The notes under the pieces: model-generated
The model's database searches: none
What the model was told of the DNA's origin: nothing
What the model saw: only the letters and a program-made list of their open reading frames with translations
Translations under genes and position numbers: made by a program
Shown here: in pieces, positions 1 through 63,511 of the stretch
How positions within the stretch are numbered: position 1 is the stretch's first letter
Layout: each line of letters begins with the position of its first letter
Assembly (NCBI GenBank): GCA_000442015.1
Contig: KE560949.1
Location: forward strand, 24,835 to 88,834
Reading direction: 5' to 3'
Origin: Rozella allomycis CSF55
Lineage: Eukaryota; Rozellomycota
Length of the DNA: 64,000 nt

Positions 1-1080
1 GTTTCTGAATGATAAAGTGACAAATTTCTGCCATGTAAGACAAACCAGTATCTTTTCCAGAGCTTACTTGAGGAAGTAAAAGTAAATTACTGGGATTATC
101 ATATCTTCTTTGTATAATGTTATAAATCCTTCCTGCTCTACAGTATCTGGCACTATTTGGGCTTCTTTCTCGTCTTCTTCGTAAAATGTTGCCACATACA
201 TATTCATTTGAGCTATACCGTCTTTGTCATGTGAATTCTTTCGCAGTAAAAACGTGCCAAGTGCGAAATCAGACGTGATTTTTGATTTAATCTCCAGATT
301 CACTGACCCAAGAATTTGATGATTATTTGATAACGCGTATCCAATGTTGCTTGATTTACCTCTAATGGTCCCCATAAAACTTTTTGTTTTTGAAGCGATC
401 GACTTTTCCTGAATACTTTGGTTTAAGGATATTTTTAAGGGCATGTCATATTGTAGGTCTCTTCATACAAAAAAACTTTAAGCTATTACACCAGGAAAGA
501 ATCTTGCACGGACATTATTTCAAATGGTGAAAATGTCTTTGTTTTCAGGCAAATATTCCCTGAAGTCAGGGTGAGAAATATTGGAGATGAAGCTAATTAA
601 ATAAACGCTTATTTGGGTACTATCTATAGTTTGCTTCAGATGGATTTTATCTATTTTGATCAGTAACTTGGCTTCCTTTTCATTGAAGGTTTGGGTTTTC
701 ATATCGGCAATATTATTGTTGAAAACACTTAATACATCAGCATGTTTCTTTGAATTCCCTATCTTCATAGTTTTTGTTTTGTTCAGTAAGTCTTTAAAGG
801 TAGAGCGACTCAAGGTGCTTTTAAAGCTTTTAATGCTTTGGGTATCGTCATCACTATGCATATTTCTTTCCTTAAGTATAACATAACAGTCGGCTTTTGT
901 GTTAACATTCAAGTTTTCAATCCATTTTAAAGCATTTTCAGAGATAGCCGTAGAGTTAATATGTAAGTTTCCTGGAAGCCTTTCACGAAGAATAGTAGGT
1001 ATAGATACTTCTGTGCTTTCATATGCGGTGTCTTCGTATTGAAATGAAGATACACTAAGTCGACGGGAAATAGAGTTCAT
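1..1080 (-). CDS. Unknown protein, 3' end beyond the window edge
   Basis: I do not recognise this protein. Start is taken at the ATG at 1080; an in-frame ATG at 1125 is possible, but it lies almost on the stop of the upstream exchanger gene. Two separate ORFs (520-1143 and 64-444) join with the rest only after removing three mini-introns of 28, 29 and 26 nt, each GT...AG, leaving one open frame to base 1. The N-terminus is Ser-rich and polar; the middle reads like beta-strand segments (FLTLTSGNICL, GSVNLEIKS), and the end has GRIYNIIQRRYDNPSNLLLL. No signal peptide or membrane helix is visible. The frame continuity across three introns supports a real gene; function is open. Confidence 0.5.
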
Positions 1081-1160
1081 CGTGGTAAACAAAAACAAAA
1101 ACTTGTGAATAAACAACAACATCATTGTTGAAATATAATACAATGTTCATGTTATATTTA

Positions 1161-2873
1161 TTATGGTTGGGGGAGTAATATTCCTAGCCCTAACAGGAAT
1201 GAAAACGGCAGGTATAAAACGTAAATTCCTATCAGGACAACTCCAAAATATCTTGGTATTTTATACTTATAAAATGTTGACGTTGATACTAGTGTTATCA
1301 ATGCCGCGAGGACAAGAACAGCGAACGCAAGGTAAATATCTATCATTCCTGTAAATGCAGGAAGAATTGGACCATCACTTAAATTTAAATTCAGCAAAGA
1401 CACCCCTAACGTCAAAAGGACGTTTTGTATAGGGCCACAAAATATTGCTGTTACTGCAGTCTCAAAACTTCCAGATCGTGCAATTGCAATGTTTGCAATT
1501 AAATCCCCAAAAGAATTACCCCATGCTAAGATAATGATACCAAGAACTGCATCTTTAATCTTTAGGACCATGCCAATAGTTTGAAGTAGCTCAACTACAT
1601 CTTGAGTTACTGCGTAGATCCAAAATATAGTAACAACAAATGCATAGATGACAATTAATAAATTATACACGGGATGAGATTTCCATGAAGATGTTTTAGC
1701 AAAAATAAGTGAAAATATGAAGGATAATGTCATTACGATGTACGACAAAGGGAAGCCATTGATATTCTCGTTTAACTTTCCAGAAAGAAATAAGATTAAG
1801 AAAAAAGAGCAGAATGGATTGATAACAAGTCGAATTCTATAAAGAACTAGGCTTTCAAATTTCCAAGCATTGTTTTGATCTATATCCATGTCATCCAACA
1901 AAGGAGGGACAGACAAGATTGATATTAATTCTATAGGAGATTTTAAAATAAAGATAATTCTGTCAATTAAATTAAGATTATGAAATCCTGAATAGTCTAT
2001 CAAATATTTAGGCAAGTGTCTAAAATTAAATGTTGTTTCATTGGAAACGTCTTTAACTATCTTGTCTTCATTCGCAATCAAGCTATGTTTTCTGATTTGA
2101 AAAAGTATAACAGAGCCTATATGTAATGCATAAGTTATAAGAAAAAGAACCGGAACCCACAAAGGTAGATACCTTGTCTGAGCAATAGCAACTACCCCGA
2201 CCACAGAAAGTAAAAATAAGATAATATTTTTAACAAATGAAACTTTTGAAAGCGAATTTTGACGCTCACTAACAAAAAATTGGATGCTTTCTTTTCTTGA
2301 TAGCGTCGTTTGCATTTCGATTGCACCAGAAGACACAGTTGTATCTGATGAAGGTTTTTGAATGTCAACATCACAAAAATCAGATTTCTTTGCAACTAAT
2401 ATTACAATACCAAGCACAAATGTTGTTATAAACAAGCCAGATCCAACAGATGAACCAAATACCATCCCGGCTTTTTCTTGTGTACCGGTTAATGCTGTGA
2501 AAAAATCTGGAGCGCCATTTCCAATCGCTAAAAGTGTAACACCGGCTACATCAGGCGATAACTTCAAATATTGAGATATTATTTCAAGTGACTTGCATAA
2601 ATGTTTATCTGATATTACAAATAGAAACAGGAAGAATAGTATAAGTAACATCAGACCGCATAAAAGCATCAGAAAAGGGCTCTTTAATTGACAAAAATAC
2701 AAAGCATTGTAATTTATCATTGACTCTGACTTACATTCCACCAACGAATATCTACATGCATCACTACTTGACAACGATGGCAAAGTTGTACAATCAAATT
2801 GGCTGCTTGAACTTTGCCCCAACACATTCGCTAAATGACTCACTAAGAATACTAGTAAGGTAAATTTGTTCAT
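1161..2873 (-). CDS. Cation/Ca2+ exchanger, NCLX/CCX type (CaCA superfamily)
   Basis: A single-exon 570-residue polytopic membrane protein. It has an N-terminal signal peptide (MNKFTLLVFLVSHLANVLG), a short Cys-containing luminal segment, and two clusters of membrane helices around a polar loop (about residues 165-270). The two inverted alpha repeats of the Ca2+/cation antiporter superfamily are present: TLLAIGNGAPDFFTALTG near residue 117 and LAWGNSFGDLIANIAIARSG near residue 450, with the acidic residues that bind the cation. The GNGAPD plus AWGNSFGD pair is typical of the NCLX (SLC8B1)/plant CCX branch rather than NCX. Members exchange Ca2+ for Na+, K+ or Li+ in mitochondria or other endomembranes; which membrane is used here cannot be read from the sequence. 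It ends about 80 bp from the next gene on the same strand. Confidence 0.9.
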   Translation of the reverse strand: MNKFTLLVFLVSHLANVLGQSSSSQFDCTTLPSLSSSDACRYSLVECKSESMINYNALYFCQLKSPFLMLLCGLMLLILFFLFLFVISDKHLCKSLEIISQYLKLSPDVAGVTLLAIGNGAPDFFTALTGTQEKAGMVFGSSVGSGLFITTFVLGIVILVAKKSDFCDVDIQKPSSDTTVSSGAIEMQTTLSRKESIQFFVSERQNSLSKVSFVKNIILFLLSVVGVVAIAQTRYLPLWVPVLFLITYALHIGSVILFQIRKHSLIANEDKIVKDVSNETTFNFRHLPKYLIDYSGFHNLNLIDRIIFILKSPIELISILSVPPLLDDMDIDQNNAWKFESLVLYRIRLVINPFCSFFLILFLSGKLNENINGFPLSYIVMTLSFIFSLIFAKTSSWKSHPVYNLLIVIYAFVVTIFWIYAVTQDVVELLQTIGMVLKIKDAVLGIIILAWGNSFGDLIANIAIARSGSFETAVTAIFCGPIQNVLLTLGVSLLNLNLSDGPILPAFTGMIDIYLAFAVLVLAALITLVSTSTFYKYKIPRYFGVVLIGIYVLYLPFSFLLGLGILLPQP

Positions 2874-3209
2874 CTATGATAATGTTTGCCTGCGCCACTC
2901 TATGAATTCTTTCCATGAGCAGTTAAATAAAGCAAATAAATCTACCACTTATTACTTAAGATAAATTATCAGGCAAAAAGCATAAGCGTCATTCATTAAA
3001 TTTTTCTAATTAAACAACCTTATTTATTGCATTCCAAAATTTCATTATTGGGAAGCGATGATAAGAGATTTATCAATCAATGATGCCGCTTCCATTTCAA
3101 CATGATTTTTATAGGTAAATTCGATGAACTGACCTAGGATTCAGCTTTNTTTAGGAAGCGGTGATAAGAGATTTATCAATCAATGATGACGCTTCCATTA
3201 ACATGATTT
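2874..3209. other. Intergenic stretch with an assembly duplication
   Basis: Between the exchanger start and the RING gene stop. It holds no ORF of its own. Its distal half (3051-3148) is a near copy of the 3' end of the RING gene that follows the N at 3149. Confidence 0.6.
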
Positions 3210-3249
3210 TTATAGGTAAATTCGATGAACTGACCTAGGATTCAGCTTT
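3051..3249. repeat. Direct duplication of about 97 bp flanking a single N
   Basis: Positions 3051-3148 and 3154-3249 are near-identical (a few substitutions and one 2-base indel) and are separated by the N at 3149. Both copies contain the last codons and stop of the RING-finger gene. The pattern fits two contig ends, probably from two alleles, that overlapped but were not merged. Confidence 0.8.
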
Positions 3250-3734
3250 TTTCTACAGATCGGACATAACTTTGTTGTTCTGCCAGCTTCTACTAGACAC
3301 GAGTAACAACCCAAATGTCCACATGCCGTGGTAGATAATTCTTCGGCTTCTTCGTTCAAGCAAATAGGACAACGGACAGATGGTTTACTTTTCTTAGATT
3401 TCCTGGTCTTACAGTCTTCTCCACTTTTAGTTCCTTCATCTTCACTTATCAAGTCAATAACTACATGTTTAAATTTATCATTAGAACCTCTATCGTCATC
3501 GCTGTCAACAATTATGACGGGGTTCGGTTGTTTGACTACAATCGGAGAAAGAATCTTATCTTCTATTATATTTATGGTATCTTTTTTATCCACCTTGGAT
3601 TTACGGCTAGTCCTTCGTGCAGACATCGAGTTCTGAAGAGTTTGAAATTTTGGTTTCCTGGGGTCAGGAAGAATAACATTTGGAGAATATTCATCGGAAG
3701 AAAATTCATAATTAAAGTCCACATTTGAAATCAT
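3210..3734 (-). CDS. RING-finger E3 ligase, RNF4/SLX8-like (SUMO-targeted)
   Basis: 174 residues. The C-terminal third is a C3HC4 RING: CPIC, then CGHLGCYSC, then CPIC, followed by a short tail ending RSVHRIYL, the layout seen at the very C-terminus of RNF4 and Slx8. Upstream are two hydrophobic-acidic stretches that look like SUMO-interacting motifs, PVIIVDSDDD and HVVIDLISEDE, in a low-complexity basic/acidic N-terminus. This combination is the hallmark of SUMO-targeted ubiquitin ligases, which ubiquitinate poly-SUMOylated nuclear proteins during DNA repair. The 3' end is repeated across the N at 3149, almost certainly an assembly artefact. Single exon; the ATG at 3734 is the first in frame. 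Confidence 0.8.
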   Translation of the reverse strand: MISNVDFNYEFSSDEYSPNVILPDPRKPKFQTLQNSMSARRTSRKSKVDKKDTINIIEDKILSPIVVKQPNPVIIVDSDDDRGSNDKFKHVVIDLISEDEGTKSGEDCKTRKSKKSKPSVRCPICLNEEAEELSTTACGHLGCYSCLVEAGRTTKLCPICRKKLNPRSVHRIYL

Positions 3735-4067
3735 TTTTGAATGAAAGACGCTGGTTTTTGACCCAATACCTACTTAGCCACACGAAATGTCCAAGTCCTA
3801 ATATCGTGATTGTTTGACACCATCTAGTCTCGTGATGTAACAAAATATAATTCGTCGAAAATTTATATTCATATTTCGAAATTATTGATCTCTTTTTACC
3901 TTCATGTATCATCTGAAACTCTAGCATAAAAACTCTATTCTTCATTTCATGATTTCATCAAAATGATCTAATTCATTAAGATAAAGAAATCTTCAAAAAA
4001 ATTATAAGTTTGCTATAAAAGTATGCAAATAATTTATAATTTTATTATATATATTATCATTTGAAAA
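3735..4067. other. Intergenic, no gene seen
   Basis: A 77-codon minus-strand ORF runs through this stretch, but it has no recognisable composition or motif. I read it as the 5' flank of the RING gene and the 3' flank of BUD23. Confidence 0.5.
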
Positions 4068-5013
4068 TTAGAATCGAGGACGTCTTTTGCGAGCAGTGTA
4101 TTTAGAATCTTCTGGCACATTAATTTTGCCTCGTTTTCTATTTAATTCCTTCTTTCTCAACACCCAATCCTTATCTTTAACATTCTTTTTACCCTTCCTT
4201 TTTCTCTCCCTTGTTCGTTCTGATACGCTTGCCTGCACACTATCATCTTCACCTGTACCTAGAGCGATAGGGGCTACATATTCTCCCGAGGAGCCAGTAA
4301 ACAAGCAAAGATAATACTTTTTGGCTTTTGTGCTATGAGGATAGTCGATAACAATTCCACCGGTAAATCCTGCCTTCATAGCGCTTGTTGTGATCATAGT
4401 AATCTGATCAGGATGATCAGGATAAAATTGAAAAACCGCGCGGGCACCTCTGCAAAGCGAAGAATACAAAGTTCCAAAAAATCTATTCAGGCGATGGTAA
4501 GGGCTATTAATTTTCTTGTCAGCGTTACATAACCATTGGAGAGCGGATACACTTTTCTTAAAAAAAGTATGTTTTCTACCTTATTGCTCCATCAAATGAA
4601 CCAGGCCTAAAGCAAACACCTGTTCCCATATCGTGAAGCATCAAATCTCCATCAGCTTCTCTTTCTCTTGCGATATCTAATAAAAACCAATCTGTTCAAT
4701 GTACCCAACATTGAAGAACTGATGTCCAAGCCAACCCAATGATGACCGGACTCTGAAAGGACTTCACCGGATAATCCAGACCCGCAACCAATATCCAAAA
4801 TAAATCTTGGGGAATCGTCTTGTATGTTTAGTAATTCAATACATCTCTCTGACATTTCGGCTTGAATCTGAATGATACGAGTACTGATTTTATTTGAAAA
4901 AAGTATGGATTACTTTGAAGAGTATTTTTTAGCCTCAGATTCGTTATAAAACTATTTTATTCATAAATTTAAATTACTATTTCAGGTGGAGCTTGAAGTT
5001 CTGGCCTTGACAT
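4068..5013 (-). CDS. BUD23: 18S rRNA (guanine-N7)-methyltransferase BUD23
   Basis: Five exons joined by introns of 26, 30, 28 and 28 nt (4952-4977, 4884-4913, 4677-4704, 4552-4579) give 277 residues. The N-terminus MSRPELQAPPEIFYN and the following SNTRIIQIQAEM match the family, as do the SAM-binding motif I DIGCGSGLSGE, then SALQWLCNAD, and the long basic C-terminal tail rich in KR. BUD23/WBSCR22 methylates a G in helix 43 of 18S rRNA with TRMT112/Trm112 and is needed for 40S maturation. Start and exon choice are fixed by homology to the family. It is divergent from the PRPP synthetase gene, with about 280 bp between starts. Confidence 0.95.
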
Positions 5014-5296
5014 GATTTTCTAAATTTTTTGAAGCCAAGCCCCAGAATAAAATAATGTGAAACCTGCAATCTGGCTACTAAATTCTATAATTTCTCTTAT
5101 CTTTACTTAAATAGCTATTTCATGGTTGTCCGCCTGAAAAGCTCAAGAAAGGAATCTTTGCATTCAAGAGCATGCTTTATGAATTATGGCTTTCTGGAAC
5201 AGTCAGACTACTAAGGTTGCACATCTTAAGTTTTATTTTTGTCTTTTGATAGTGACATGGTGCTAAGAACGTAAGCCTCAAAAATTGAAATTTGAA

Positions 5297-6343
5297 ATGT
5301 CCAATTCCATAAAGTTGATTACTGGAAATTCACATCCCGAGTTGGCTAAACTTGTAGCCAAAAAACTTCACGTGGAAGTAGCGAAAATACTACCTGTAAA
5401 GCTAACCAACCAAGAAATATCAATCATTATTGGGGAATCAGTTAGAGACGAAGATGTCTTTATTTTACAAACTAATTGTGGAGAGATAAATGACCATTTA
5501 ATGGAATTATTGATGATTATATCTGCATGTAAATCTGCATCAGCAAGAAGAATAACAGCGGGTACAGTCTAGTTTTGAATCAAAATAGTTTTACCATGTT
5601 ACCCCTATTCTCGGGCAGATAAAAAAGATAAGGCTCGAGCTCCAATTACTGCAAAGCTAGTGGCTAATATGATAACGGTTGCAGGGGCTGACCATATTAT
5701 AACGTTAGACTTGTAAGGAATACATTCGACTTTATTTCGGGCATGCCTCACAAATACAGGGATTTTTCGATATACCAGTGGATAATCTATATGCAGAGCC
5801 TATGCTTGCAAAGTATATAAAAGAGAATATTCCAGATTACAAAAACGCAGTGGTTGTCAGTCCTGACAGTGGTGGCGCAAAACGCTGTACATCTCTCGCA
5901 GATAGACTTGACACTGACTTTGCATTAGTATATAATATTAACTATATAAACGGTAGATTCATAAAGAAAGAAAACGCGCTAATGAAGTCTCGCGGATGGT
6001 TCTAGTAGGAGAAGTGGCAGGAAAAGTGGCGATCATTGTCGATGATATGGCTGACACATGTGGGACTCTTGGTTTGGCAGCACAAGTATTGATTGAGCAT
6101 GGAGCTAAATGTGTATATGCGATTGTAGTCCACGGGATTTTGTCCGGTAAGGCCCTGAAGGTTATTAATGAATCTGCACTATCGGAGGTTGTTGTTACAA
6201 ATACAATACCACACCAAGAAAAGAAAGAAATTTGTCCAAAACTAAAGACAATTGATATTTCATGCATAATATCAGAAGCTATTAGACGTACTCACAATGG
6301 AGAATCAGTTTCTTATTTATTTTCAAATGCACCGGGACTTTAA
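5297..6343 (+). CDS. PRS: Ribose-phosphate pyrophosphokinase (PRPP synthetase)
   Basis: 320 residues after splicing, close to the usual 318. Motifs: N-terminal [12 protein letters not shown], the ATP loop region [17 protein letters not shown], the [21 protein letters not shown] segment, [11 protein letters not shown], and the PRPP-binding loop [10 protein letters not shown]. It makes PRPP from ribose-5-phosphate and ATP for nucleotide, His and Trp synthesis. Introns: 27 nt (after residue 92), 28 nt at 5713-5740, and 29 nt just before [11 protein letters not shown]. The second one has a normal GTAAGG donor but must end in CGG, not AG, to restore the invariant LDLHASQ reading; see findings. The start is the ATG at 5297. 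Confidence 0.95.
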
Positions 6344-6363
6344 AAAATAAATGTAAAAAATAA

Positions 6364-8333
6364 TTATAATTTATTGTCCAAAGAAAAATAAGAACTTCTT
6401 TTAAACCCTGGTGTTGTAAGAGCGTCTTCTAATTCCATTGACATGTCTTCAGCATCATAATAAACACAGCTGTCTACAGGTATATCATTTCTTAATGTAA
6501 AAGAAGCATTCTCTTCTAGCGCTTTGCACAAAAGATTATTGGTGATGGAGTCGCCCGGTTTCAAACTTAATGCCTATTTGTATCGCATGAGACGATTTTA
6601 CTTTATGATAATATTCTATAGCTTCTGAAAATTCATTTTTTTGATGATACAGATAACCGATGCACAGGTATGGATAGTAATCACTTGGTTTAACAAGCTG
6701 TGCATTCTCAAAGCAAGTCAAACTGTTTCTAAAATCGCTATAATAAAAAATAAAGTTTCTTACTGGAGATTTCTGTAAACTTGACCTAAATTTATGTTCA
6801 GCTTGAACAGCGAATCTCCTTCAGTAGAGAACGTTTTCGATAATTCTTTAGCTTTTTGGAAATAGGGGAGCGCTTTCTCATAACTTTTAATTATTTGTTT
6901 CAAATTTACTTTTGATTTTTATAATGCAAAATCCCAAGTTCATTTTGAACTTGAGGATCTTCTGGACAAATTTTCTCGGCTTCAATCAAAAATTGTTCAG
7001 CAGCTTGAAGATTATTAGTTAAATGGTGCTCGATTCCAATAGCAAGGAGAGGCAAATGACATCCTACAAAATGCCTTGATGCAGATGAATATGCAGAAAT
7101 GGCTTGGTCATGTTCGCCCGCCATCGCAAAGGAATGTCCAAATGCTAACCACCCACTGGAAAATAGAGGTTCCAAAGAATATGATTTTGAGAGATATCTG
7201 CGAGCTTCATCAAGTTTGTTTATTAAAAGGTAATACAACCCAATAGTAAACCACGTTACGCCTTTTTGGGGATAAAGCTTTACCAACTCATGTCCCATTT
7301 GAAACAAAACATTTTTCTTTTTTAATTGATACAAAACTGAAACATGAAGTGTTAAAACGTCAATAACGTGGGGATCCTTTTTAAGAATCTTGGACGTCGT
7401 AGTTAAACAATCTTCATACGCACCTGTAATAAAATATCTTTCGGCTTGTTGTAAAAGTACAAATGGTGTTTCTAAAGAGTTTAAATTCTCTTGACTTGAC
7501 AAAATCCCTCGATTCGCATAGTCTAATGCCAAATACTTTTATTGCGGGTAAAATATTATTACTTTCTTTAATTTTATACTGTACATTTGGTATAGAAAAG
7601 TACTTGCTGTTGAAGGAAGCTGAGAAAATTGAATGCTTTGTAAAAGTTCAATCTCCTCCTCTTTGGTTAACATATGATTGCTCATCAATGCATTAAATGC
7701 TTGAAAGCAAGTGGGATCAGCCAATATAGCCTTTCTATAAAATTCACTGGATCGTTTAAAGTTTTCCAATTTGTAATGAATTGAGGCCATTAGACAATAT
7801 ACTTGCGGTAAAAGCTTACGATCACCCAATGAATGAACTTTAAAATCAAACATTTCTAATTACCTGGATCAAAATTTTCCAAGAGACAAAGGGCCTGCTC
7901 AAATTGCTCAAGCTTAATGTGGCATTTAGCGGCAATTATCATGGCTTTTGGATTTTTAATGCTTAAAAACTTTGAGGCATGAGCTAAACATCTATGGTAT
8001 TGGTTATTTTTATACAGAAGATCACAAAATTCTAGCTCCTCGTTAATATCATCTACACAATCATTTAAACCTGCATTGTGTACCAGTAATTCCTATTAAT
8101 GTCTCATGGTAAAATAAAGCTGTTTCAAAATCTCCTAAATTGTTGTAGTTGTTAATTTCTTGTTTCAAAAACGGAATCAGATGCTTAAACGCTGAAACAT
8201 CTGATTTCAAATCAAAATTATCAGGAATTTCATAATCAACATTCGCATGACTTTTGGGGCTATGAGCAAATGGTGAAAATGAAAATATTAAACTCTTTCT
8301 GTTATTCGGAGTCGTAAACGCTCTCTTCATTCT
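6364..8333 (-). CDS. CDC16: Anaphase-promoting complex TPR subunit CDC16/APC6
   Basis: Seven exons (introns 31, 26, 27, 26, 26 and 28 nt) encode 601 residues made mostly of TPR repeats. Family landmarks: an N-terminal helix pair ending GDFETALFYHETLIGITG, several TPRs, and the diagnostic FVGCHLPLLAIGIEHHLTNN followed by AEKICPEDPQVQNELGILHY. CDC16 is a scaffold TPR subunit of the APC/C ubiquitin ligase that drives anaphase and mitotic exit. The start is uncertain: the ORF extends upstream to an ATG at 8471, only 7 bp from the divergent RHO start, but that extension looks like translated promoter, so I chose 8333. The C-terminal tail after the last TPR is short and divergent. Confidence 0.9.
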
Positions 8334-8478
8334 CCAAGCCACTGAGTCAACATCAAGTGAAATTGTTAATGAAATAAATTGAAAACATTCATTTTTTAAA
8401 TGATTATTATGGTCGCCGATTTCCACTTTATTATTTTTTGTAAAGTGCCTAACGTAAACAAACAAATTCATTGCAGCA

Positions 8479-9145
8479 ATGTCGTCGGTTATTCGCAAGA
8501 AAATAGTCATAGTAGGGGATGGTGCCTGTGGAAAGACATGTCTTTTAATTGTTTATTCTAAGAAAGAATTTCCAGAGGTAGATGTCTTTATGCATGAGAT
8601 AACTTAGAAATACGTACCCACAGTTTTTGAAAATTATGTTGCAGACATTACTGTGGATGGAAAACACATTGAATTGGCTCTATGGGATACGGCTGGACAG
8701 GAGGATTATGATCGATTAAGGCCATTGTCTTACCCAGACACTGACACAGTGCTTGTTTGTTTTTCTGTTGATAATCCAGTTTCATTGGAAAATGTGGAAT
8801 CTAAGGTACCATCATCCTATATGATCAAGTTAGTGGTATCCGGAAGTAGTCCACTTTTGTGAAGGTGTCCCAATTATACTGTTGGCTTTGAAGTCTGATC
8901 TTCGAAATGATGAGAGGACTATAGAAGAATTAAAAAAGAATAATCTAAAGCCTGTATCTTTCGATGAAGTACGTCTAACATATCGACCTTATTAGGGATT
9001 GGCAATGGCCAACAAAATAAATGCATACAAGTACATTGAATGTTCAGCAAGAAAGAATGAAAAGGTCTACGATGTGTTTGAGCACGCAACGCGGGCTGCT
9101 TTAATGTCCAGAAAGAAAAACAAACTCAAATGTCTATTGATGTAA
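8479..9145 (+). CDS. RHO1: RHO-family small GTPase (RHO1/RhoA type)
   Basis: Four exons with introns at 8578-8607, 8806-8833 and 8969-8995 (30, 28, 27 nt) give 193 residues, exactly the RhoA length. G1 GDGACGKT, switch [11 protein letters not shown], switch [19 protein letters not shown], a KSDL in the NKxD position (N replaced by K-S), and ECSA (G5) are present. The C-terminus is basic and ends CLLM, a CaaX box. Rho proteins regulate actin, cell polarity and wall synthesis. The CaaX ends in Met, which usually favours farnesylation, whereas typical Rho1/RhoA end in Leu for geranylgeranylation. Divergent from CDC16. Confidence 0.95.
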
Positions 9146-9171
9146 AAATAATAAATCTAATTCTTCTTACT

Positions 9172-50108: not shown

Positions 50109-50192
50109 ATAATAAAATAGATTATTGTCAAATGTTCATTTATCAATTTTAAGTTATTGTAGTCGGATTGCGAAAGACGAAATTTCTGGTTT

Positions 50193-51681
<1,489 letters not shown>

Positions 51682-51760
51682 TCATTAAATATAAATCTAA
51701 TAAACCTTTTATACATTTAGTGTTGAAATTGTTCACGCCCAAATCCCAGCCACCAAAAAA

Positions 51761-52951: not shown

Positions 52952-53032
52952 CGTTCCTTCAAGCCTGGAATATGCTGATGCAAATAAACTTAATATTTTA
53001 GTATTTGAAAATAAGAGAAGCACCGATTTTAT

Positions 53033-53954: not shown

Positions 53955-54203
53955 TGCTTACCAGGGTATTTCCATGTGAAATATTTAAAATATGTCTCAT
54001 GTGAACGTGTAGGATATCTCTTTCAGTTTAGTTATAAATTCAAACTCGTTTTACACTTAATTTACACCTTAATCAATATTATATTTTCTGTCAAGCAAAT
54101 TCGCAATTTATTTCTACGAGTCTATTTACTAGTATTATTTGGCGCGTCAGCAATTAATTTCTCCCTAAATGATGGTGAGATATGAGAAATCGAAATTTCT
54201 AAA

Positions 54204-56478
54204 ATGCCTGTCCATCATTTAGATTTTTTTCTTGCCGAAATAAGAGTTATACATAATGATAAACTCTCTTCTATTGAAGGAATAAGACTTGGAATTGATG
54301 CTCAATATTGGTTACGTCGTATAGTTGGAAGAGAAGCGTACCATACGATGATGGGAGGTGCTCCCTGGGACTTTAGAGCACACATAGAAAAAGAAATTAA
54401 TATTCTAAAGTAAATTTTTAGTCTATAATTGTTAAAGAAAATTAAAAATCACGCCAGTTTTTGTATTTCCGGGGTTGTCGTTGTGTGTTAAAGGGAGCAA
54501 GCCAAAATTTCCTAATGACAAGGAGCGAATGGAAAAACGGGAGGCTGCTTGGAATCTTTATGAGAACGGAGAAGTTGATAAAGCATTGAATCTATTTTCG
54601 TCGACATCCAGTATCTATAATTTTCATGAATAATATAGATGGCCAAAGTAATGAAATGATGATGCAACACTTGATGCTTATTTTAAGAGAATTGAATGTT
54701 GAATTTATGAGAGCTCCATATTCGTCGTTGGCTCAATTGGCATACTTTGCTTCCAGTGAAATCAATTACGTACATTTAGTTTTCGCTCCTTCTGATATTC
54801 TACTGTATCAAGTAGAGAGAGTGATAATTGCTCTTGATTGCGACAAAGATGTTTGCAATTGGGTTGACAAGGAGCAATTGTTGCATGAAATCCAGTTAGA
54901 CGAAGATCAATTTTTAGATTTTTGTTTATTGGCTGGATATGAAGACTGCCCAACCTTTCCTCCTTTTGCTGAGACCCCTGGATCTTTCAATATAAAGTCC
55001 GTATTTGAGATTTTCAAGCAATATGGCTCTGGATCATATATTATTTCTAGTTATTACGATCACCCTAAAGTCAAGGAGATTAACTATGGAGATATATTCG
55101 CGAGATCTAAATGTTACGTAAAACATCATTTAATCATGGATGAAAATGCAAGTGTGCAGCCCCTCGACATGGACACATCTCCTTCGTAAAAATGAATTTT
55201 ATTGATTATAGCGACTTACATGAAATAATAGGAAGTCAATTACCACAAGTTGTTTATTTTCTTTTGTCTCTTGGCTATCTTTCTCCTCATACGATCAATG
55301 GTCTTTTAAGTGGAAACTTTATGGAATATCGACCCTTGTGTGGTGGGAATACCAAGGAATACAAAAATTTCTTGAGAGATCACATAGCTACTTACACTCA
55401 AACTTTGAATTATTTGACCCATACTTTGCACGGGTACTTTAGAAATTCTAAAGTGGTAAGAGGTACCTTAAATCACTATTAGAATGTTTCATATTGGTTT
55501 GATTATGAACACAAGCTAAAGGTCCCATTGGAGCACAACTTTAGCCCCTCGCTTTACGAGTCTCTAAATTGGATTGTTCCACATGACTTTCGACATTTCA
55601 TTCATCAACTTAACGTAAATAATTTTCTATTTATTAATAAGCAAAACAAGACTGATTTATTTGCTTGTTTAAGGTTCCTTCGCATATCCCCTGAAAGTGG
55701 GTATAGAACCAGGGGTTTGTTGTCGAATTCGCCATTAACAACGAAAGATGAAGTTTTGGCATCAATTTTTTGGAGATTTTTGGAGTTGAGAAATTTTATT
55801 GACACTGAACACATCTTGACATTTAACGGTACTGCATTGTCTACCTTGGAAACCTTACATCAAGAAGAAATACTATTAGCTGTTGAACTGATGAAGTCCA
55901 AGTTACTTCATGGTAGACCGTTTTCCAATGAAATCTTAGAATTGGAATCTAAAGAAGATGTCTACATTCGCTTGATATCCAGAGCTTGTTGTTTACTTCA
56001 TCCAATTTCCAAGTTGGACTCCCAGTGGAATGGTAAAGTTGATAGGTACTTGTTGCCTTTTGTTTCATGCATCAATTCTTTGAAAAGCTCTTTTAGAGGT
56101 TTAATGGATGCAATACTAGTTAGTCTTGCCTATCACGACCACTTAGAACTTACTCCTACTCAATTTCATGATATTTTAACCTCTATGCCATTTTCAATTC
56201 AATCTTCCTCGGCTCTTGGCTGTCTTTGCTCACGTTTCCTTCAATTATACAAACTCGAGTCTGGACCAAAAATATTCAAAACTCTTTCATCAGAGTACAC
56301 TGGTTGGGGTAACGTTGCAATGGACCTTAAAGTCTGTATGGAATTCTTTGATCAAGTAACTGCCGTTGTTAAATTTATTTATCAAAACTTTCGCGGGATT
56401 CCCGAGGCTGTCTATAATGAATTCTCTGAAGCCAATGATTGGCTTCAAGGACCAAAAAAATTACTTTTAAATATATAA
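54204..56478 (+). CDS. MKT1: MKT1-like post-transcriptional regulator
   Basis: Five exons (introns 28, 28, 26, 27 nt) encode 721 residues. The N-terminal half is an XPG/PIN-like nuclease fold (IRLGIDAQYWLRRIVG, RAPYSSLAQLAYF, DEDQFLDFCLLAGYEDCPTFP); catalytic acids are only partly kept, as in yeast Mkt1. The C-terminal half is the MKT1-specific helical domain (LRNFIDTEHILTFNG, GPKIFKTLSSEYTGWGNVAMDL). Yeast Mkt1 acts with Pbp1 and Pbp4 in regulating mRNAs such as HO and those for mitochondrial proteins. The family is largely fungal (also in trypanosomes), which is useful for placing the organism. Confidence 0.9.
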
Positions 56479-56626
56479 AGCGCTATTTTGTTCCTTTTTA
56501 TTTTAAATTTGTTCCTGTTCTAGTATTTGTTGATTGGGCGGCTTAGTTACGGGAATCGCCCGACATTGTTTAGTCGCATTGTAAAATTAAACCTTGATTG
56601 TAATCACTAGTCATTATAATAAAACA

Positions 56627-57797
56627 ATGGGTATTTGTGCTAGCAAAGAAGATCAAGAGAACAAACGCAAAAATGAAGAGATTGAGAATCAATTAAAAAA
56701 TGAACAATTAAAAGCCAGCAAGGAAGTAAAGATGCTTTTATTGGGTAAGATGGTCTTGATTGATTAATATAGGTGCTGGTGAATCCGGCAAGAGTACTAT
56801 TCTTAAACAGATGAAATACATTTATGATGGTGGTTACAATGAAGACGAGAAAGATTCTTTCAAAGAAATTATCTTCTCTAACACAGTTCAGTCCATGAGA
56901 GTTATCCTGGAGGCTATGGATCGATTATCAATTCCACTAGGAGATTCAGGCAACCAAAAGTTTAAGGATGTCCTTTTTGCTCTTCCAAGTCAAATCGAGA
57001 GTGAAAGTTTTCCAAAAGACGCCGCTGAAGCCATTAAGGCTTTATGGGCGGATACTGGAGTACAGGAAGCCTTCCGTCGCTCCTCTGAGTATCAATTGAA
57101 TGACTCTGCCAAATAGTAACCGTAATTTTTTTACTTAAGCAGCTACTTTGAGTCTATAGATCGTATTTCAGATCCTACGTACAAACCAACAGACCAGGAT
57201 GTTCTTCGTTCTCGTGTCAAGACCACAGGTATCACAGAAAGCACTTTTACAATTGGTGATTTAACATACAAGTATATTTATTGGGTGTTATTTTTAGGTT
57301 ATTTGATGTTGGTGGTCAAAGGTCTGAACGAAAGAAATGGATTCATTGTTTTGAAAACGTTACTGCTATTGTTTTCTTAGTGGCCATTTCTGAATATGAC
57401 CAGAAGTTGGTCGAAGATGAGTCTGTCAATCGAATGAATGAGGCCTTGACGTTGTTTGACTCTATTTGTAATAGCAGATGGTTCGTCAAAACCTCCATCA
57501 TCTTGTTTTTAAATAAGATTGATAGATTCAAAGATAAAATACTTGTTTCTCCCATCGAAGCTACATTTCCAGAATATACCGGTAAAATTATACCAGTGGC
57601 TACAAATAGGTGGTACTGACTTTGATTCAGCGTGCAAGTTCTTTTCAGACAAGTTTACATCTTTGAATCAATCAGAAACAAAGCAGATTTACGTCCACTT
57701 TACTTGTGCTACTGATACTAACCAAATTAAGTTTGTTATGGCTGCGGTTAATGATATTATCATTCAAGCTAATCTACGTGACTGTGGTCTCCTTTAA
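56627..57797 (+). CDS. Heterotrimeric G protein alpha subunit (Gi-like)
   Basis: Five exons (introns 28, 27, 26, 28 nt) encode 353 residues, the usual G-alpha size. MGICAS at the N-terminus carries the N-myristoylation Gly and palmitoylation Cys. P-loop GAGESGKST, helical domain, switch I with catalytic Arg ([11 protein letters not shown]), switch [23 protein letters not shown] and [12 protein letters not shown] are all present. It ends DCGLL, keeping the Cys four residues from the end that is ADP-ribosylated in Gi proteins by pertussis toxin. It couples GPCRs to cAMP or MAPK pathways. Confidence 0.95.
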
Positions 57798-57914
57798 AAC
57801 GTCAATAAATCAGCTTCTTTTCTTTGACAAGATATCATTTACCTTTTTCGAATACCTAAAAGTTGTAGACATACATTTTTTGATCTCGGCTGTTGCCTAG
57901 ATACTTTCAAAGGA

Positions 57915-59838
57915 ATGCATGCCATCGAATCCAACTTCAGCAGTACAAATAATGTCGACGCAAACAGCAACGAAGATGTTAAGCAAAGTGATATTAATCC
58001 GTTAAACTCGTTATTGCGCAAAGATATTTTAGATACGTTTTGGACATACAAAGAAAAGACAAAATCAATTCTTTTTGATAACCCAATGGAGGTTTCTGAA
58101 TACTTTCCAATGATGAAATACATGACTGGCGCTACCAAAAGGGAAAATCTTATTGTCGAAAAAACCTTGGACGATCTCGATCATTTGCCGGCTATTCAAA
58201 ATAATCATTTTATTACCAGCAAGGTCAAAAACTCTACAGAAACGCCCTTGTTGAATTTATATAATAACTACAGGCGAGAAGATATAAATAAGTTAAGAGT
58301 TAACCGAAAGTCTGAGAAAACACACGCAATGCCCTTGGAAAACAATAAGTTTCAACAAGAAGTCAATCAAGTTCAACCCAAGAATTGGTCCGAACTACAC
58401 AATATGATGGGTAATTGTATTTAGGGCGTAAGAAAGATCAGGCAAAAGCTTTCAAATTCGATAAGACAACAGATATTGAGTTTGATGGAGTTGTGGAAAA
58501 TACAAGGAGGAAGGATAACCGGAGTAATAAAAGAAAAGAGGAAATTGATATAACTATGAATATAACCAACCAAAAGTACGACAATGAAATAAGCAAAGTA
58601 TTGATGAAGCAAAAAAAGGTTATGACAATGACGGAAGAAATTAGATCCCTCATAAAGGATTTGCAATCCAACGAAAGCATGAAATTTGCTTTTTATGAGG
58701 GGATTGGTAGAATATTATTTGCAATTAGTAGTTAAGAACATCGAAAGAAACTGCAGATGGCTAAAGAGAAGTACAATTTTGTTTCATCAAATAAATCGAT
58801 AAGAAATGACAAATTGGAAAAAATAAAGGAATCAGTAACAATATTAGTATTATATTTTTGGCAATTCTGCATGAAGAAAAATTAGACAAAATATTGAAGA
58901 CTAAAAGAATTATAGAAGCTGATAGGCTAGAAAAAATCCTTAAATCATTGAAAAAGAAAGGAACCAAAGTAATGCGTTATAAATATCGGCTATATAGCTT
59001 TACATAGTTCAAATGAAGGATACAGAAAACGACATCTTCAACAAACGACAGAAATGGTCTTGTCTAATTAAGCTATTTGCAAGACTACAGGAATTAAAGA
59101 ATAATCAAAAGGTATATCTATATATTTTCTTGCATCGAAGGCCAATCAAGTTGAACTCAAAGAGAGGCAAACTCAAAAATGGGCTATTGATATGATCCAA
59201 TCATTTTATCTCAAACATCATAAAGAAATAGGAGAGAAAAGATATCAAGTATCTCTAGCCGCTCTAAAAAAGTATAATTTATCATGCGATGAATATAGGG
59301 TTCTACCGCCTTACGTCCACTGTTGGGTAAAAAACCGTCAAGACCAGGCCTCTTCCATCATTCAAAAATTCGTTCGTGACAATGTTGATATGGCTTCAAT
59401 TATGAGACTGTCAAAAACATTTTTGTTATCAGGTAATCAAACTATACGCAACTTTATTTAAAGTCCTCAAAATTCAAAAAGTTTACCGCGATTATTCAGA
59501 GTTTATTAACGCACAAGTTATTCTAATTGCTTATCAATTTGAAAAGTACAAAAAGCAAAAGATTATTGACTCTTTAAAGAAGCCTACTCAAGAAGAAATT
59601 AACACTATAAAAAATTTGACTACTTTTAATGGTGTGATTTTCACTGATGATATTGAAAAAACTGATAAAAAATTGGACCAGATTGAGTTATTTTTAAGAA
59701 AAAGAAGGCATAAACATCTTCAATCTCCTAACAAAACTGGAAAACGACACAAAGTACTAACCACTTCATTTGTAATAACATTAGATACTTTTACTCAAAT
59801 CCGAGCTTGAAGAGCTAGAAAAACGGATATTGGATTGA
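57915..59838 (+). CDS. Lysine-rich coiled-coil protein with IQ-like motifs, unknown
   Basis: Eight exons (introns 26, 30, 26, 29, 29, 31, 31 nt) give 573 residues in one frame. The N-terminal 190 residues are polar and unstructured; the rest is charged helix with two IQ-like stretches, SSIIQKFVRDN and VLKIQKVYRDY, that could bind calmodulin or an EF-hand light chain. The C-terminus is coiled coil (LKSELEELEKRIL). The third intron (58835-58860) has a GTAAC donor and seems to end in TTG. I do not recognise the family; the composition resembles axonemal or centrosomal proteins, which is inference only. Confidence 0.65.
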
Positions 59839-59957
59839 AGAATGCGCTTATTAAATAAAACATCTAAAAAAAATTTTCTACTTATTCATTATTATGCAAT
59901 ATGAAAAACAAGACTATTAAAGATGACGAGAACAAACAATTTATTTCATTATATATA

Positions 59958-62900
59958 TTAGTTTTTCATTCGATAGGCTTGTACCTGAGGCATTGGAGGA
60001 GGAGGCGGTGGAGGTATTCCACTTGTCACATTCTGATTGCCACCTGTTCGAGGTTGTGGTCCTTGTTGTCTTGCCACAGACGCAGCGACGTAATTTTTCT
60101 GTACTTGGATGTTGTCTTTAAAATAAACAAAAAATGAATACCTTGAGTTTCCTGGCTTTCAAATCTTTCAATCGGTCCTATGATAAAGGCAGAATAAAAT
60201 TACTTGTGGGTGGTCTTCTGTTTTGTTGAGTTTGTGGTAAGGCCTGCTGGGTCGCTTTTTTATAAAGAAATTATTTAATTTACGTATTTCATCATATTCG
60301 TTGTTCAAGTTCGTATTTCTATACATTTGTGAAGGTGGGGGAGGTGGGGGTACGGCCATTTTTATTGGAGAAGGTTTGTTAGGAATCGATTCCAATTCAT
60401 AACTATTTGCGTAAGCTGATGGAGCCATAGGACGAAATTGCTCCGCGTTCCGGTTATTCGAAAACTGAGGTCCAGACGTTATACTATTATTGCTATTATT
60501 GAATTTTTCTGGAGGCGGAGGAGGCGGAATTGGATTATATGCTTGTTTTTTAGAATTTAAGCGTGCCTGCTCTATGTTCTCGCTAATTGAGGACTGGGAG
60601 ATTTGTCCGGTGGTGTTATGGAATGATGGAGGAGGAGGAGGAGGAATTGGATTAAGAGTTTGTTGTTTAGAATTTGGACGCAGCTGCTCCGCGTTTCGGG
60701 TACCGGAAAACTGAGATTCCACATCCAGAGGAACATTATTATGGAAAGTTGGTGGTGGAGGTGGAATTGCATTATTTTTTTGTTGTTTAGAAATCGGAAG
60801 AAACTTCTCCGTGTCTCGACTATTAGAAATTTGAGATCCCAGAGGTGCATTATTATGGAATGATGGTGGTGGTGGAGGCGGAGGAATTTGGTTATTAGGT
60901 TGTTGTTTAGAATTTGGAAGCTTCTGCTCTGTGATCCGGCCATTAGAAAACTGAGATTCTAGACTCACATTATTATTATTGAATTTTGATGAGGGTGGAG
61001 GAGGGTTTTGAGTTTGGACTTTGGAGTTTATACGAGATTGCTCAGAGGTCCTGTCATTCGAAGACTGAGCTACTTGATTTGCAAACTTCCCACTATTACT
61101 GAATGCTGGAGGAGGCGGAGGAATTTGGTTATTAGCCTGTTTTTGTTGCCTATTGTTTGGATATGAATATTCGTAGCCTTCGTCTTGTGCATTATCAATA
61201 GAATCAGAAATGTTTTGAAAATTAGCTACTCTTGGAGGCGATGAAATTTCATGGTTTTGTAGCCCCTGTCTCATATTTAGGTTAGTTCGGCTGTTATTGG
61301 TAATGGGACCTTCTGATGATATATATTGTTGTTGGGACTGTATTTTTGGAGGTATATTTTGCGGCTGTCGGGCATTCAGGCTCATACCGTACGATTCTGG
61401 AGGACTGTTATTTTGAATTCGTGACTGAGGTTGTCTCGTATTCTTTTCCATTTTCTTTATGTTCTCATTTTCAATAGGCGAGTCTTCTTCATCTTCATTA
61501 ACGTTATTGTTGCGATTTTGAGACGTTGAACGGATTGTATTAGTGCCATAACCTTTTCCGGGAGGCGGTGGAATAGTCTTTGGGACGTTATGACTGTTCA
61601 TAGACTGCTTGGGATTAACGGCACTCACATTCTCAGTATAAGGTGAATGCCCTACTTCCGCCATTGCAGCATTGGTTTTCTTCAGTTTCGCCTTTCTAAG
61701 TTGATCAGCAAGTGTTCCTGTTTCTGGTGGCTCGGGGTAATCTTTTATCTTTTTAAAAAGGTTTTACCTGCAGCATCTGTCGATTGGATGGTTGGCGATG
61801 TTTTAGCGGCAACCAATGGCTTAGTTTGGGCCAGTGGTGGTGCAGTAGCAGCTGTTAAATTTTGCTTCTTTAGTTTGGCATTTTTTAACTTTTCGGCTAA
61901 ACTTGATGATACGGGACTGAATTCTTCGTCATTAGGATTCGTATCTAGTTTGTTATTTTGCGTTATAGCGCTGGTAGTACTCCACTGGTTGTTTTTGTCA
62001 ACTTCATGATCCTTCTGTGACTGTGTAGATATCTTATTTAATTTTGCTTTTTTTAATTTTTCTGCCAAGGAGGAAGTTTTTTCAATCTCGTCGGTCTCAT
62101 TCTCATTCTTTGATGTTGGACTATAATTGTATGAGACTTGTTCTTTGTAATTATGATTAATCGATTCATTTTCCGCTTCTATATTTTGGTCATAATCAAA
62201 ATTCTGGTTATTCATCATTCCTTGATAATCTACAATAGAAGACTTAAGATGAAGCGTACTTTTATGGTACTCAGTGTCAAATGATTGAATATTTTGTGTT
62301 TCTATATAAGCAGACGAAAATTCGTTTTCGACATAAGAATTATTGTTTGAATAAGAGTTAATTATCGTGCTAGGAGAATAAACACTTCCTTGATTATAAC
62401 CGGCATGATTTTGCTCTTGGTACTCTAAGAAAATCGAGTAACCATCTTTACGATTGTTATTATTTCTGATAGGATTAGCCATTTCAGTTTCTATATTTTA
62501 GATTCAATTTTAACCATACTCGCAGACATCGGTTTTCTTATTGTGTTCATGTTTTGGATTGGTGGAGGAGGGGCGTTTCTACTAATAGGAGTAGATATGC
62601 TATTTGAAGTGCTGTGTTGAAAAACATCATCAGTATTAGAGGTAAATGAACTTGAGTCAAGATCAGTTGTATTCCTTTTGTTATCAACGTTGGCATTTAT
62701 ATATTTATCTAAATATAACGTTTTTCAAATTGGTACAATTGCTATTTCCCAGTGGCATATTATTAGAGGGTGTTTGACTCTTGTTACTTTGGCCTCTTTT
62801 TGGAGCTATTTGAATAAAAAAAGTATTAGATACGATTATTTTGCAAATAATCTAACCTTATCTGTATGGCCCGCATGTCTTCTTCAATTTTACGTAATGC

Positions 62901-63424
62901 CAGAGATGACGTTGGCATTCCAAGTTCTTCATTGTTCTCCACAGTCTTCTGGTACCATTTACGAGCTGCTTCTAACTCTTTTCTCGCTTTTTGAAGATTA
63001 TAATCATAAAGATTAACACTTGCTATTTCCATTTGTTGCATCCATTCAAAATTTTTTGTCTGCGAACCAGAATCAAGAAAGAATTGAGATCCTTCTACCG
63101 CTCTAAACATTATAACATTTCTTTTTTCTTTGTAAAAATACGACATCACAATGCTCTCTTCTATGGAAATTGTTATTTCTGGCTTTTCAAAGTTTTCACA
63201 CTTTTATCATCCATAAATTGTGTTACTTTTTCTTTAGACTGATATAATTGAAGATACATTCCTTTAAGGACGCCAAAAAATGGGACCCAATGTCTATTTT
63301 TTGCTCTGGTTCCACCAGCTTCTTGATCAGTCTTCACATTGAGAGGTCCTCTACAATATTCAATTGATATTGCCGGCATTTGATCCGGTATTACATCAGC
63401 CCCTTTCTCGTCGACTTTGCTCAT
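59958..63424 (-). CDS. PH-domain protein with GAB/WH2-like motifs and polyproline repeats
   Basis: Nine exons (introns 26, 28, 28, 29, 26, 29, 26, 26 nt) join into 1082 residues. Order: N-terminal PH domain (HWVPFFGVLKGMYLQLYQSK, ISIEESIVMSYFYKEKRNV, MFRAVEG), recalling EFA6/PSD PH domains; a coiled coil (ARKELEAARKWYQK); a linker with APPPPIQ; three copies of a G-actin-binding-like motif (SLAEKLKKAKLNK, SLAEKLKNAKLKK, TLADQLRKAKLKK); then about nine polyproline stretches (IPPPPPPPSFHN type), several in imperfect tandem repeats of about 35 residues with the wording NSKQQ. The C-terminus has GIPPPPPPPMPQVQAYRMKN. This suggests a membrane-recruited scaffold that gathers profilin-actin. The domain combination is unfamiliar to me. 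Confidence 0.75.
60480..61130 (-). repeat. Imperfect tandem repeat encoding polyproline units
   Basis: Inside the PH/polyproline gene, units of roughly 105-115 bp recur about six times. Each unit encodes a Gln/Asn segment with SKQQ, a run of 5-7 Pro, then FHNN/FNNN and a Ser/Arg/Glu-Gln segment. Units differ in length and by many substitutions. Confidence 0.7.
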
Positions 63425-63511
63425 TGTCGCTGCCTTGGCAACCTACCTGGTTGATGATCGCAAATGTTAACAACTAAACCTAAACCGTAGGATAATCTTT
63501 TGATTTTAAAA

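What the first reader, a model, noticed from the sequence alone, without database searches (positions are those of the whole stretch)
1..63500. About 105 spliceosomal introns, all but one 26-31 nt
Splicing the genes by hand against conserved protein patterns gave about 105 introns in 26 genes. Their lengths run from 26 to 31 nt, nearly all with GTA donors and AG acceptors. After removal, coding lengths are exact multiples of three in every complete gene, and several match family lengths exactly (RHO 193, RPT4 389). This is close to the smallest intron size known outside ciliates and nucleomorphs, and the very narrow range suggests a measured or intron-defined splicing mechanism.
Basis: partly seen in the sequence, partly recalled or inferred. 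Interest (0 to 1): 0.75.

Follow-up and report, generated by a model that had tools for sequence, protein, structure and literature searches.

The report
Tiny introns measured by a ruler
The genes of this microscopic fungal parasite are cut by very many tiny introns of 26 to 32 letters, and the sequence suggests that the cell finds the inner reaction point of each intron by counting a fixed distance from its start rather than by reading a sequence word.

Summary
With a flat length prior (15-150 nt), a gene finder on 264 kb puts 301 of 472 GT-AG introns at 26-32 nt (25 nt: 1; 26 nt: 90); three decoy signals give flat histograms. The window has 88 such introns, 87 with GTA. The genome is Rozella allomycis CSF55.

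An A sits at position 23 from the 5' splice site in each main length class: 325 of 446 introns; in unseen sequence 70 of 88. A branch-point motif anchored at the 5' end fits far better than at the 3' end (log-likelihood 173.8 v 89.0). The 3' site is the first AG whose A is at position 25 or later: 446 of 446; held out 88 of 88, or 56 of 57 under the flat prior. U1, U2 and U6 are canonical, but U2 pairing at this register is hardly above other registers.

Best reading: branch site set by a ~22-nt caliper, then first AG. Stentor and Yarrowia anchor the branch point at the 3' end. No RNA data tested; 66 of 446 lack A at 23 and 24.

The parts
1..64000. 88 predicted introns of 26-31 nt in the window (both strands); the 29 listed below lie in genes checked against homologues, the other 59 have coordinates printed
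8053..8083 (-). CDC16 intron 1, 31 nt, A23
7838..7863 (-). CDC16 intron 2, 26 nt, A23 (beside a variable loop; the public model P0220 drops 12 residues here)
7536..7562 (-). CDC16 intron 3, 27 nt, A23 (public model drops 19 residues here)
6884..6909 (-). CDC16 intron 4, 26 nt, A23 (public model ends here)
6738..6763 (-). CDC16 intron 5, 26 nt, A23
6574..6601 (-). CDC16 intron 6, 28 nt, A23
8578..8607 (+). RHO intron 1, 30 nt, A at 24
8806..8833 (+). RHO intron 2, 28 nt, A23
8969..8995 (+). RHO intron 3, 27 nt, A23
41941..41967 (-). RPT4 intron 1, 27 nt, A23
41795..41820 (-). RPT4 intron 2, 26 nt, A23
41316..41341 (-). RPT4 intron 3, 26 nt, A23
40893..40922 (-). RPT4 intron 4, 30 nt, A23
48581..48609 (+). 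NADPH-P450 reductase intron 1, 29 nt, no A at 23 or 24
48700..48727 (+). NADPH-P450 reductase intron 2, 28 nt, no A at 23 or 24
48800..48826 (+). NADPH-P450 reductase intron 3, 27 nt, A23 (alignment gap nearby)
49395..49420 (+). NADPH-P450 reductase intron 4, 26 nt, A23
49680..49706 (+). NADPH-P450 reductase intron 5, 27 nt, A23
49841..49868 (+). NADPH-P450 reductase intron 6, 28 nt, A23
50356..50381 (+). VPS4 intron 1, 26 nt, no A at 23 or 24
50512..50542 (+). VPS4 intron 2, 31 nt, A23 (in the variable linker, alignment gaps nearby)
50605..50633 (+). VPS4 intron 3, 29 nt, A23
50908..50936 (+). VPS4 intron 4, 29 nt, A23
51168..51194 (+). VPS4 intron 5, 27 nt, A23; the one GTT donor
51327..51353 (+). 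VPS4 intron 6, 27 nt, A23
56745..56772 (+). G-alpha intron 1, 28 nt, A23
57116..57142 (+). G-alpha intron 2, 27 nt, A23
57272..57297 (+). G-alpha intron 3, 26 nt, no A at 23 or 24
57582..57609 (+). G-alpha intron 4, 28 nt, A23

Best explanation
These are U2-type spliceosomal introns of Rozella allomycis cut down to the bare geometry of the machine. Shown in the sequence: a GTA donor; in about three introns of four an A at position 23 counted from the donor, whatever the intron length; and a 3' end at the first AG whose A is at position 25 or later. Inferred: the A is the branch point. The spliceosome, docked on the 5' splice site by U1 and then U6, presents one spot about 22 nt downstream, and the adenosine lying there becomes the branch, with almost no help from U2 base pairing. 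After branching, the first AG at least 2 nt further on is used. The lower length limit (26 = 23 + one base + AG) and the upper one (about 9 nt after the A) then follow from the machine's geometry. What tells real introns from chance matches is AT-richness, an A at position 4, and the donor and acceptor context.
For: Fixed A: A at position 23 in 86, 65, 70, 72, 66 and 62% of introns of 26, 27, 28, 29, 30 and 31 nt (two of the five 32-nt ones), neighbours mostly 25-50%. In the 29-32 nt classes position 23 lies outside the acceptor weights of the gene finder: 90 of 132. All of 27-32 nt: 218 of 322, p 1e-30. Held-out 50 kb with frozen models: 70 of 88 (p 9e-17), and 46 of 57 with the flat length prior. 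Raw genome matches GTAAGT..TAG of 26-32 nt outside all training sequence, no gene finder: A at 23 in 27 of 50, against 12, 14 and 15 of 50 at positions 20, 21 and 22 and 11 of 36 at 24. Motif EM: 5'-anchored 173.8, 3'-anchored 89.0, unanchored 85.1. First-AG rule: 446 of 446, and 301 of 301 in the flat-prior set; held out 88 of 88 and 56 of 57; 15.7 violations expected in the main set, none seen. U2 carries GUAGUA intact, yet intron complementarity to it at register 23 is 2.96 of 6 pairs, against 2.61-3.06 at the other ten registers. Sharp edge genome-wide: 11 matches at 25 nt, 84 at 26 nt. Homology-checked genes: A23 in 24 of 29 introns, A24 in one more.
Against: No RNA read or lariat was seen; that the A is the branch point is inference. 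Of 446 introns, 121 lack A23, and 66 have A at neither 23 nor 24; four of the 29 homology-checked introns are like that. In the 26-nt class, and weakly in 27 and 28 nt, the acceptor weights cover position 23, so those figures are partly circular. In the raw list the excess is modest (27 of 50; over all 85 listed, 49% at 23 but also 44% at 26 in the few that are long enough). Where A23 is present, U2 complementarity is 3.04, the highest of the eleven registers by a small margin (others 2.58-2.95), so U2 pairing may contribute a little. The rules alone are not sufficient: 136 exonic GTAs satisfy them too, with at most slight depletion. The pattern search's own reversed-word control gave 58 and 59 matches, so only the 25 v 26 comparison is informative; the 27-nt word with A23 and TTAG gave 19 against a reversed control of 14. 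I expected Slu7 or U2AF to be lost; both families gave matches.
Confidence: 0.7

Rival explanations
1. The fixed A23 is the branch point, but nothing measures: deletion pressure has shrunk every intron to the shortest 5'SS-branch distance the spliceosome tolerates, and 22 nt is merely that minimum. A longer spacing would also be spliced.
For: The same balance of deletion and a functional floor is proposed for mikrocytids (PMC10245619 section 7); the genome is small and gene-dense (9.97 Mb; 121 models in 264 kb).
Against: A pure floor predicts a tail of spacings above the minimum. The fitted distribution is 71% at 23 and 6.5% at 24, nothing above 1% beyond 24, while the distance from A23 to the AG, under the same deletion pressure, spreads over 3-9 nt. 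Only 37 of 490 calls lie outside 25-32 nt.
Confidence: 0.2
2. The A at 23 is not the branch point but another positional contact (for example with U6, Prp8 or a bridging protein), the true branch being a variable A elsewhere.
For: U2 complementarity at this register is hardly raised; 66 of 446 introns have A at neither 23 nor 24, and these too have T at 22 (61%), as have those with A24 (62%), so the data do not show a whole motif shifting by one.
Against: The learned motif around the A is TNA with T two bases before (0.56), as in the core of a YTRAY branch sequence; no other A-rich position of this kind exists between donor and acceptor; the 3' AG rule starts exactly 2 nt after this A.
Confidence: 0.12
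3. The pattern is an artefact of the gene finder, or of introns copied from one recent element.
For: Length prior and acceptor weights were learned from the data.
Against: Flat-prior run, decoy signals, frozen held-out run and raw genome patterns agree. Positions 7-20 show no shared sequence, so the introns are not recent copies of one element.
Confidence: 0.03

Closest known systems
Stentor coeruleus 15-16 nt introns (PMC9505925, section 5 read; passages)
   Same: Ultrashort AT-rich GT-AG introns, no strong branch consensus, branch A at a set place; U1 and U2 recognition sequences conserved.
   Different: There the branch A is at position 10 of 15-nt and 11 of 16-nt introns, a constant 5-nt tail: anchored from the 3' end. 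In Rozella the loop is constant (23) and the tail varies from 3 to 9 nt.
Yarrowia lipolytica, Giardia, Trichomonas introns with constrained BP-AG distance (PMC2483917, passages)
   Same: Very short distance from branch point to 3' AG; branch point tied to one splice site.
   Different: Those are tied to the 3' AG, with a strong branch consensus in intron-poor genomes; here the tie is to the 5' splice site, the consensus is almost nil and introns of 26-32 nt number about 2.4 per kb of coding sequence.
Mikrocytid 16-17 nt introns (PMC10245619, section 7 read)
   Same: Narrow size range in a reduced parasite.
   Different: Highly conserved intron sequences, only two lengths, 224 introns, reduced spliceosome.
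Chlorarachniophyte nucleomorph introns, 18-21 nt (as reported in PMC10245619)
   Same: Many introns in a narrow short range.
   Different: Shorter; branch-point geometry not compared here.
Paramecium bursaria and Nyctotherus introns (PMC12862383, PMC2633312, passages)
   Same: Medians 24 and 23 nt; no branch motif found in Nyctotherus by AlignACE.
   Different: P. bursaria lengths run 15-100 nt; no hard floor or 5'-anchored A is reported in the passages I saw. Not re-analysed here.
Human short introns and the Smu1/RED requirement (PMC6692369, passages and Discussion part 1 of 2)
   Same: The 5'SS-branch distance, not intron length, is the limiting quantity.
   Different: Human B complex needs about 52 nt (17-nt and 14-nt helices plus 15 nm); Rozella has 22 nt, so both extended helices cannot form as in human.

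Membership tests
U2-type spliceosomal introns | GT donor and AG acceptor | tested here: met
   Required by the search, but the decoys TG..GA, GA..TG and AG..GT give no length peak; learned donor is GTA 97% over 446 introns
U2-type spliceosomal introns | Genome encodes U1, U2, U6 with the standard recognition sequences | tested here: met
   U1 ACUUACCUG, U2 GUAGUA, U6 ACAGAGA (U1 scores 69.0 against a gathering score of 69.5). U4 and U5 not searched genome-wide
U2-type spliceosomal introns | Removal restores conserved proteins | tested here: met
   VPS4, G-alpha, NADPH-P450 reductase to PDB chains; RPT4 and CDC16 to fungal and animal homologues; a few of the 29 junctions lie beside alignment gaps (see full report)
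U2-type spliceosomal introns | Excised from RNA as lariats | not testable with these tools
   No RNA data held
Introns with 3'-anchored branch point (Stentor, Yarrowia type) | Branch A at a constant distance from the 3' AG | tested here: not met
   The A moves from -4 to -8 from the 3' end as length goes from 26 to 30; 3'-anchored model 89.0 against 173.8 for 5'-anchored
Intron-poor lineages with strict branch consensus (microsporidia, Yarrowia) | Strong branch-point sequence | tested here: not met
   Only the A (0.73 over all, 0.87 in the fitted motif) and a weak T two bases before it stand out
Ultrashort-intron genomes | Nearly all introns under about 35 nt | tested here: met
   453 of 490 introns called in 264 kb are 24-33 nt; two of the 11 longer calls in the window lie in open frames and are probably false, the rest are unresolved
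Paramecium-type selection on 3n introns | Deficit of lengths divisible by three | tested here: not met
   27 nt: 93, between 26 nt: 124 and 28 nt: 97; in-frame stops in 3n introns 79% against 69% shuffled, but the gene finder favours that

The most novel reading that the evidence does not exclude
In Rozella the branch site of nearly all introns is chosen by a molecular caliper: the adenosine about 22 nt from the 5' splice site reacts whatever its sequence context, U2 pairing carries almost no information, and the 3' splice site is the first AG from 2 nt beyond it. Given the donor, both other reaction points are fixed by counting. This would reverse the usual order, in which U2 reads the branch site and spacing to the 5' site is free.
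Probability: 0.55. Interest if true: 0.85.

Novelty: new variant of a known kind. Interest (0 to 1): 0.72.

Why it matters
It offers a natural, genome-wide case in which 5'SS-to-branch spacing, studied in human mostly with shortened constructs, is held to about one nucleotide while branch sequence is nearly free. That makes the role of geometry against U2 base pairing directly testable. The spacing is well under the roughly 52 nt that the human B complex structure would need (PMC6692369), so Rozella's early spliceosome must be arranged differently. It also matters for annotation: the public CDC16 model of this species drops 12 and 19 residues at a 26-nt and a 27-nt intron and ends at the fourth junction; other gene models and intron statistics may be affected (inference). 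Rozella is treated as sister to Microsporidia (PMC8476143, passage), which have lost nearly all introns, so it may show the state before that loss (inference).

Tried and rejected
A conventional branch consensus counted from the 3' end was looked for first and not found; tabulating by length class then revealed the 5' anchoring. Loss of Slu7 or U2AF, which very short branch-to-AG distances might allow (recalled from yeast work), was tested and not supported: Slu7 146 bits over its cut-off; U2AF_lg 126.7 bits, under its curated cut-off of 310, with adjoining pieces on the same contig, while the control also rang weakly in two bacteria, so U2AF65 itself is likely but not proven. RED, the human short-intron factor: no match, but the tool states that nothing rang anywhere, so this is not evidence of absence. 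Avoidance of ruler-compatible decoys in exons: 117 at offset 23, 109-188 at the other offsets tested, so at most slight. Introns outside 26-32 nt: 44 of 490 listed; two are probably false, the others, among them seven of 25 nt, are undecided. A shift of the whole motif by one in A24 introns: I first read it so, but the introns with A at neither place have the same T at 22; dropped, and for that reason the confidence was lowered by 0.02 and the second rival raised by 0.02. snRNAs within the fetched stretches: only tRNAs (U1 begins at the end of L013). Amoeboradix and Sanchytrium were considered because of size and GC (PMC8371127, passages) and dropped.

Literature: 'constant distance' + branch point + splice site + intron length gave 0 papers; 'fixed distance' + branch point + short introns gave 1, on polypyrimidine tracts, seen as a listing only; Rozella + intron length gave 5, of which by title only PMC8476143 treats spliceosomal introns, and in the passages that I saw it gives Rozella intron density (2.53 per kb) and no length; Rozella allomycis + introns + splicing gave 21, 20 listed, read only as a listing. 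I found no printed report of the fixed spacing by these searches in an open-licence library; the Rozella genome paper of 2013 (recalled, not held) may mention intron size.
Full report
WHERE IT IS FROM. The window is contig C99, 24835-88834, of a 9.97 Mb, 213-contig genome. The window's CDC16 gene matches 'TPR-like protein [Rozella allomycis CSF55]' at 93% over 69%, on a record whose longest contig is 88,834 bases, exactly the end coordinate of C99 in the window's placement. 414 of the 416 residues of that public protein lie in three blocks identical to my 660-aa model; what is missing lies before residue 61, at introns 2 and 3 and after junction 4. So it is the same species, annotated with wrong splices. 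R. allomycis is placed in Rozellomycota.

THE OBSERVATION. On the window plus twenty 10-kb stretches of the same genome it GT..AG introns: 26 nt 90, 27 nt 64, 28 nt 58, 29 nt 50, 30 nt 25, 31 nt 9, 32 nt 5, but 25 nt 1 and 24 nt 1; the rest are scattered over all lengths. Decoy signals, trained in the same way, give 433-436 'introns' with no peak and 40-42 between 24 and 33 nt. With the learned length prior the same sequence gives 490 introns, 453 of them 24-33 nt, 99 in the window, and 2.44 introns of 26-32 nt per kb coding; extrapolated by length, about 17,000 in the genome (rough). A check without gene models: GTAAGT and ATAG at a total length of 25 occur together 11 times in the genome, at 26, 84 times. 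The tool's reversed-word control (58 and 59) is made of other words and is no measure of chance here.

ARE THEY INTRONS? Six genes were compared with relatives: VPS4, G-alpha, NADPH-P450 reductase, RPT4 and CDC16, and RHO by its Pfam match. At the ten RPT4 and CDC16 junctions the query had no gap within four columns at nine and one gap at one; CDC16 junction 2 lies beside a variable loop and two of five homologues have a one-column gap there. In VPS4 and the reductase, one junction each lies near alignment gaps in variable linkers.

THE RULER. Sorted by length, the introns show one more conserved base, at a position that slides when counted from the 3' end (-4 in 26-nt introns, -5, -6, -7, -8 in the next classes) and stands still counted from the 5' end: A at 23 in 86, 65, 70, 72, 66 and 62% (26 to 31 nt). 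Position 21 is T in 52%. An EM fit of a five-base motif with free positions gains 173.8 log units when positions are counted from the 5' splice site, 89.0 from the 3' site with the same number of position parameters, and 85.1 with no anchor; 71% of the weight falls at 23 and 6.5% at 24. Of 121 introns without A23, 55 have A24 and 66 have neither. Five further 10-kb stretches, not used for training, gave A23 in 70 of 88 introns with frozen parameters, and 46 of 57 with the flat length prior. One search found 642 raw matches and listed 100; 85 of these are 26-32 nt and 50 of these lie outside all training sequence: 27 have A23, against 12, 14 and 15 at positions 20, 21 and 22.

THE 3' END. In all 446 introns of 26-32 nt (and 301 of 301 of the flat-prior set) the acceptor is the first AG whose A lies at position 25 or beyond. 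Start points of 24 and 26 predict 438 and 322 of 446. Earlier AGs are common: 24 of 446 at A23-G24 and 8 of 322 at A24-G25 are passed over. At the AG rate of positions 7-22, 15.7 exceptions were expected and none seen (p about 1e-7). Held out: 88 of 88, and 56 of 57 under the flat prior, so one exception is known. One caution: where two AGs lie three bases apart in frame, the gene finder's length preference could hide an exception.

THE MACHINE. U2, U1 and U6 were found once each, full length: U2 with GUAGUA, U1 with ACUUACCUG, U6 with ACAGAGA. SF1 and Slu7 have matches over their curated cut-offs; U2AF_lg matches are below it. Introns make little use of what these RNAs could read: donor position 5 is G in 22% and position 6 T in 44%, and the bases around position 23 have 2.96 of 6 possible pairs with U2 against 2.61-3.06 at the ten other registers; counting only introns with A at the register, 3.04 against 2.58-2.95, a small excess. 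Chance matches to the rules in exons exist (136 against 315 real introns with GTA and A23); core GC, A at position 4 and the donor and acceptor context separate the two sets with a combined AUC of 0.949, though these weights were trained on the real introns.

INTERPRETATION. The simplest account is that A23 is the branch point, placed by distance. Human B-complex geometry needs about 52 nt between 5' splice site and branch: a 17-nt U6 helix, a 14-nt U2 helix and 15 nm between (PMC6692369 Discussion part 1). With 22 nt, both helices cannot be extended as in human. If the short intron forces a tight arrangement, only one place can reach the donor, and sequence reading by U2 becomes nearly unnecessary. 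Steps shown: positions and rules in DNA. Steps inferred: branch identity, caliper, first-AG use.

COMPARISON. Stentor's tiny introns keep a constant 5-nt tail and vary the loop (PMC9505925 section 5); Yarrowia, Giardia and Trichomonas keep a constant branch-to-AG distance (PMC2483917 passages). Rozella does the reverse. For Paramecium, Nyctotherus, mikrocytids and nucleomorphs I saw no statement of a 5'-anchored branch point in the parts read; I could not re-analyse them. In microsporidia, the relatives of Rozella, the E. [quoted passage not shown]

LIMITS. No RNA evidence. About 15% of introns (66 of 446) have A at neither 23 nor 24. In the 26-28 nt classes the acceptor weights touch position 23; the 29-32 nt classes (90 of 132) do not have this flaw. 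My automatic models contain errors outside the short class. Whether 22 nt is a measured distance or only the shortest workable one needs spacing mutants.

Noticed in passing
window 6364-8510 (-), P0220: The public R. allomycis CDC16 model is 416 aa against 660 aa here: it starts at residue 61, drops 12 residues at intron 2 and 19 at intron 3, and stops at junction 4.
   Followed up: yes
window 3149 and 17405: Single N flanked by an exact repeat: 50 nt shared by the two flanks of 3149, 12 exact nt offset by 36 at 17405, the latter doubling 11 residues of a coiled-coil protein; looks like assembly joins. The other eight Ns share no word over 9 nt between their 150-nt flanks.
   Followed up: yes
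window 32012-34847 (-) and 20951-21562 (-): A PIF1-like helicase (PF05970, 1.6e-15, in frame 32253-34286) and, about 11 kb away, a fragment closely resembling the C-terminal part of that gene model: perhaps remnants of a mobile element.
   Followed up: partly
window 44484-44583 (+): A tRNA match spans 100 bases, so it probably holds a tRNA intron of roughly 27 nt; tRNA introns are cut by another enzyme.
   Followed up: no
window 9172-9996 (-): Intronless extradiol dioxygenase (LigB type); the named taxa among the 99 hits are bacterial apart from one yeast, at about 25-33% identity: a possible gene from bacteria.
   Followed up: partly
window 24321-25400 (+) and 25447-27204 (-): Two convergent intronless frames of 359 and 585 aa with signal-like starts and hydrophobic stretches near the C-terminus, no Pfam match.
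   Followed up: partly
window 51168-51194 (+): A GTT donor, the only non-GTA one among the 88, inside VPS4 where the protein alignment is gap-free.
   Followed up: yes
whole genome G000: RED (PF07808), needed in human for introns with short 5'SS-branch distance, gave no match; the tool warns this does not show absence.
   Followed up: partly
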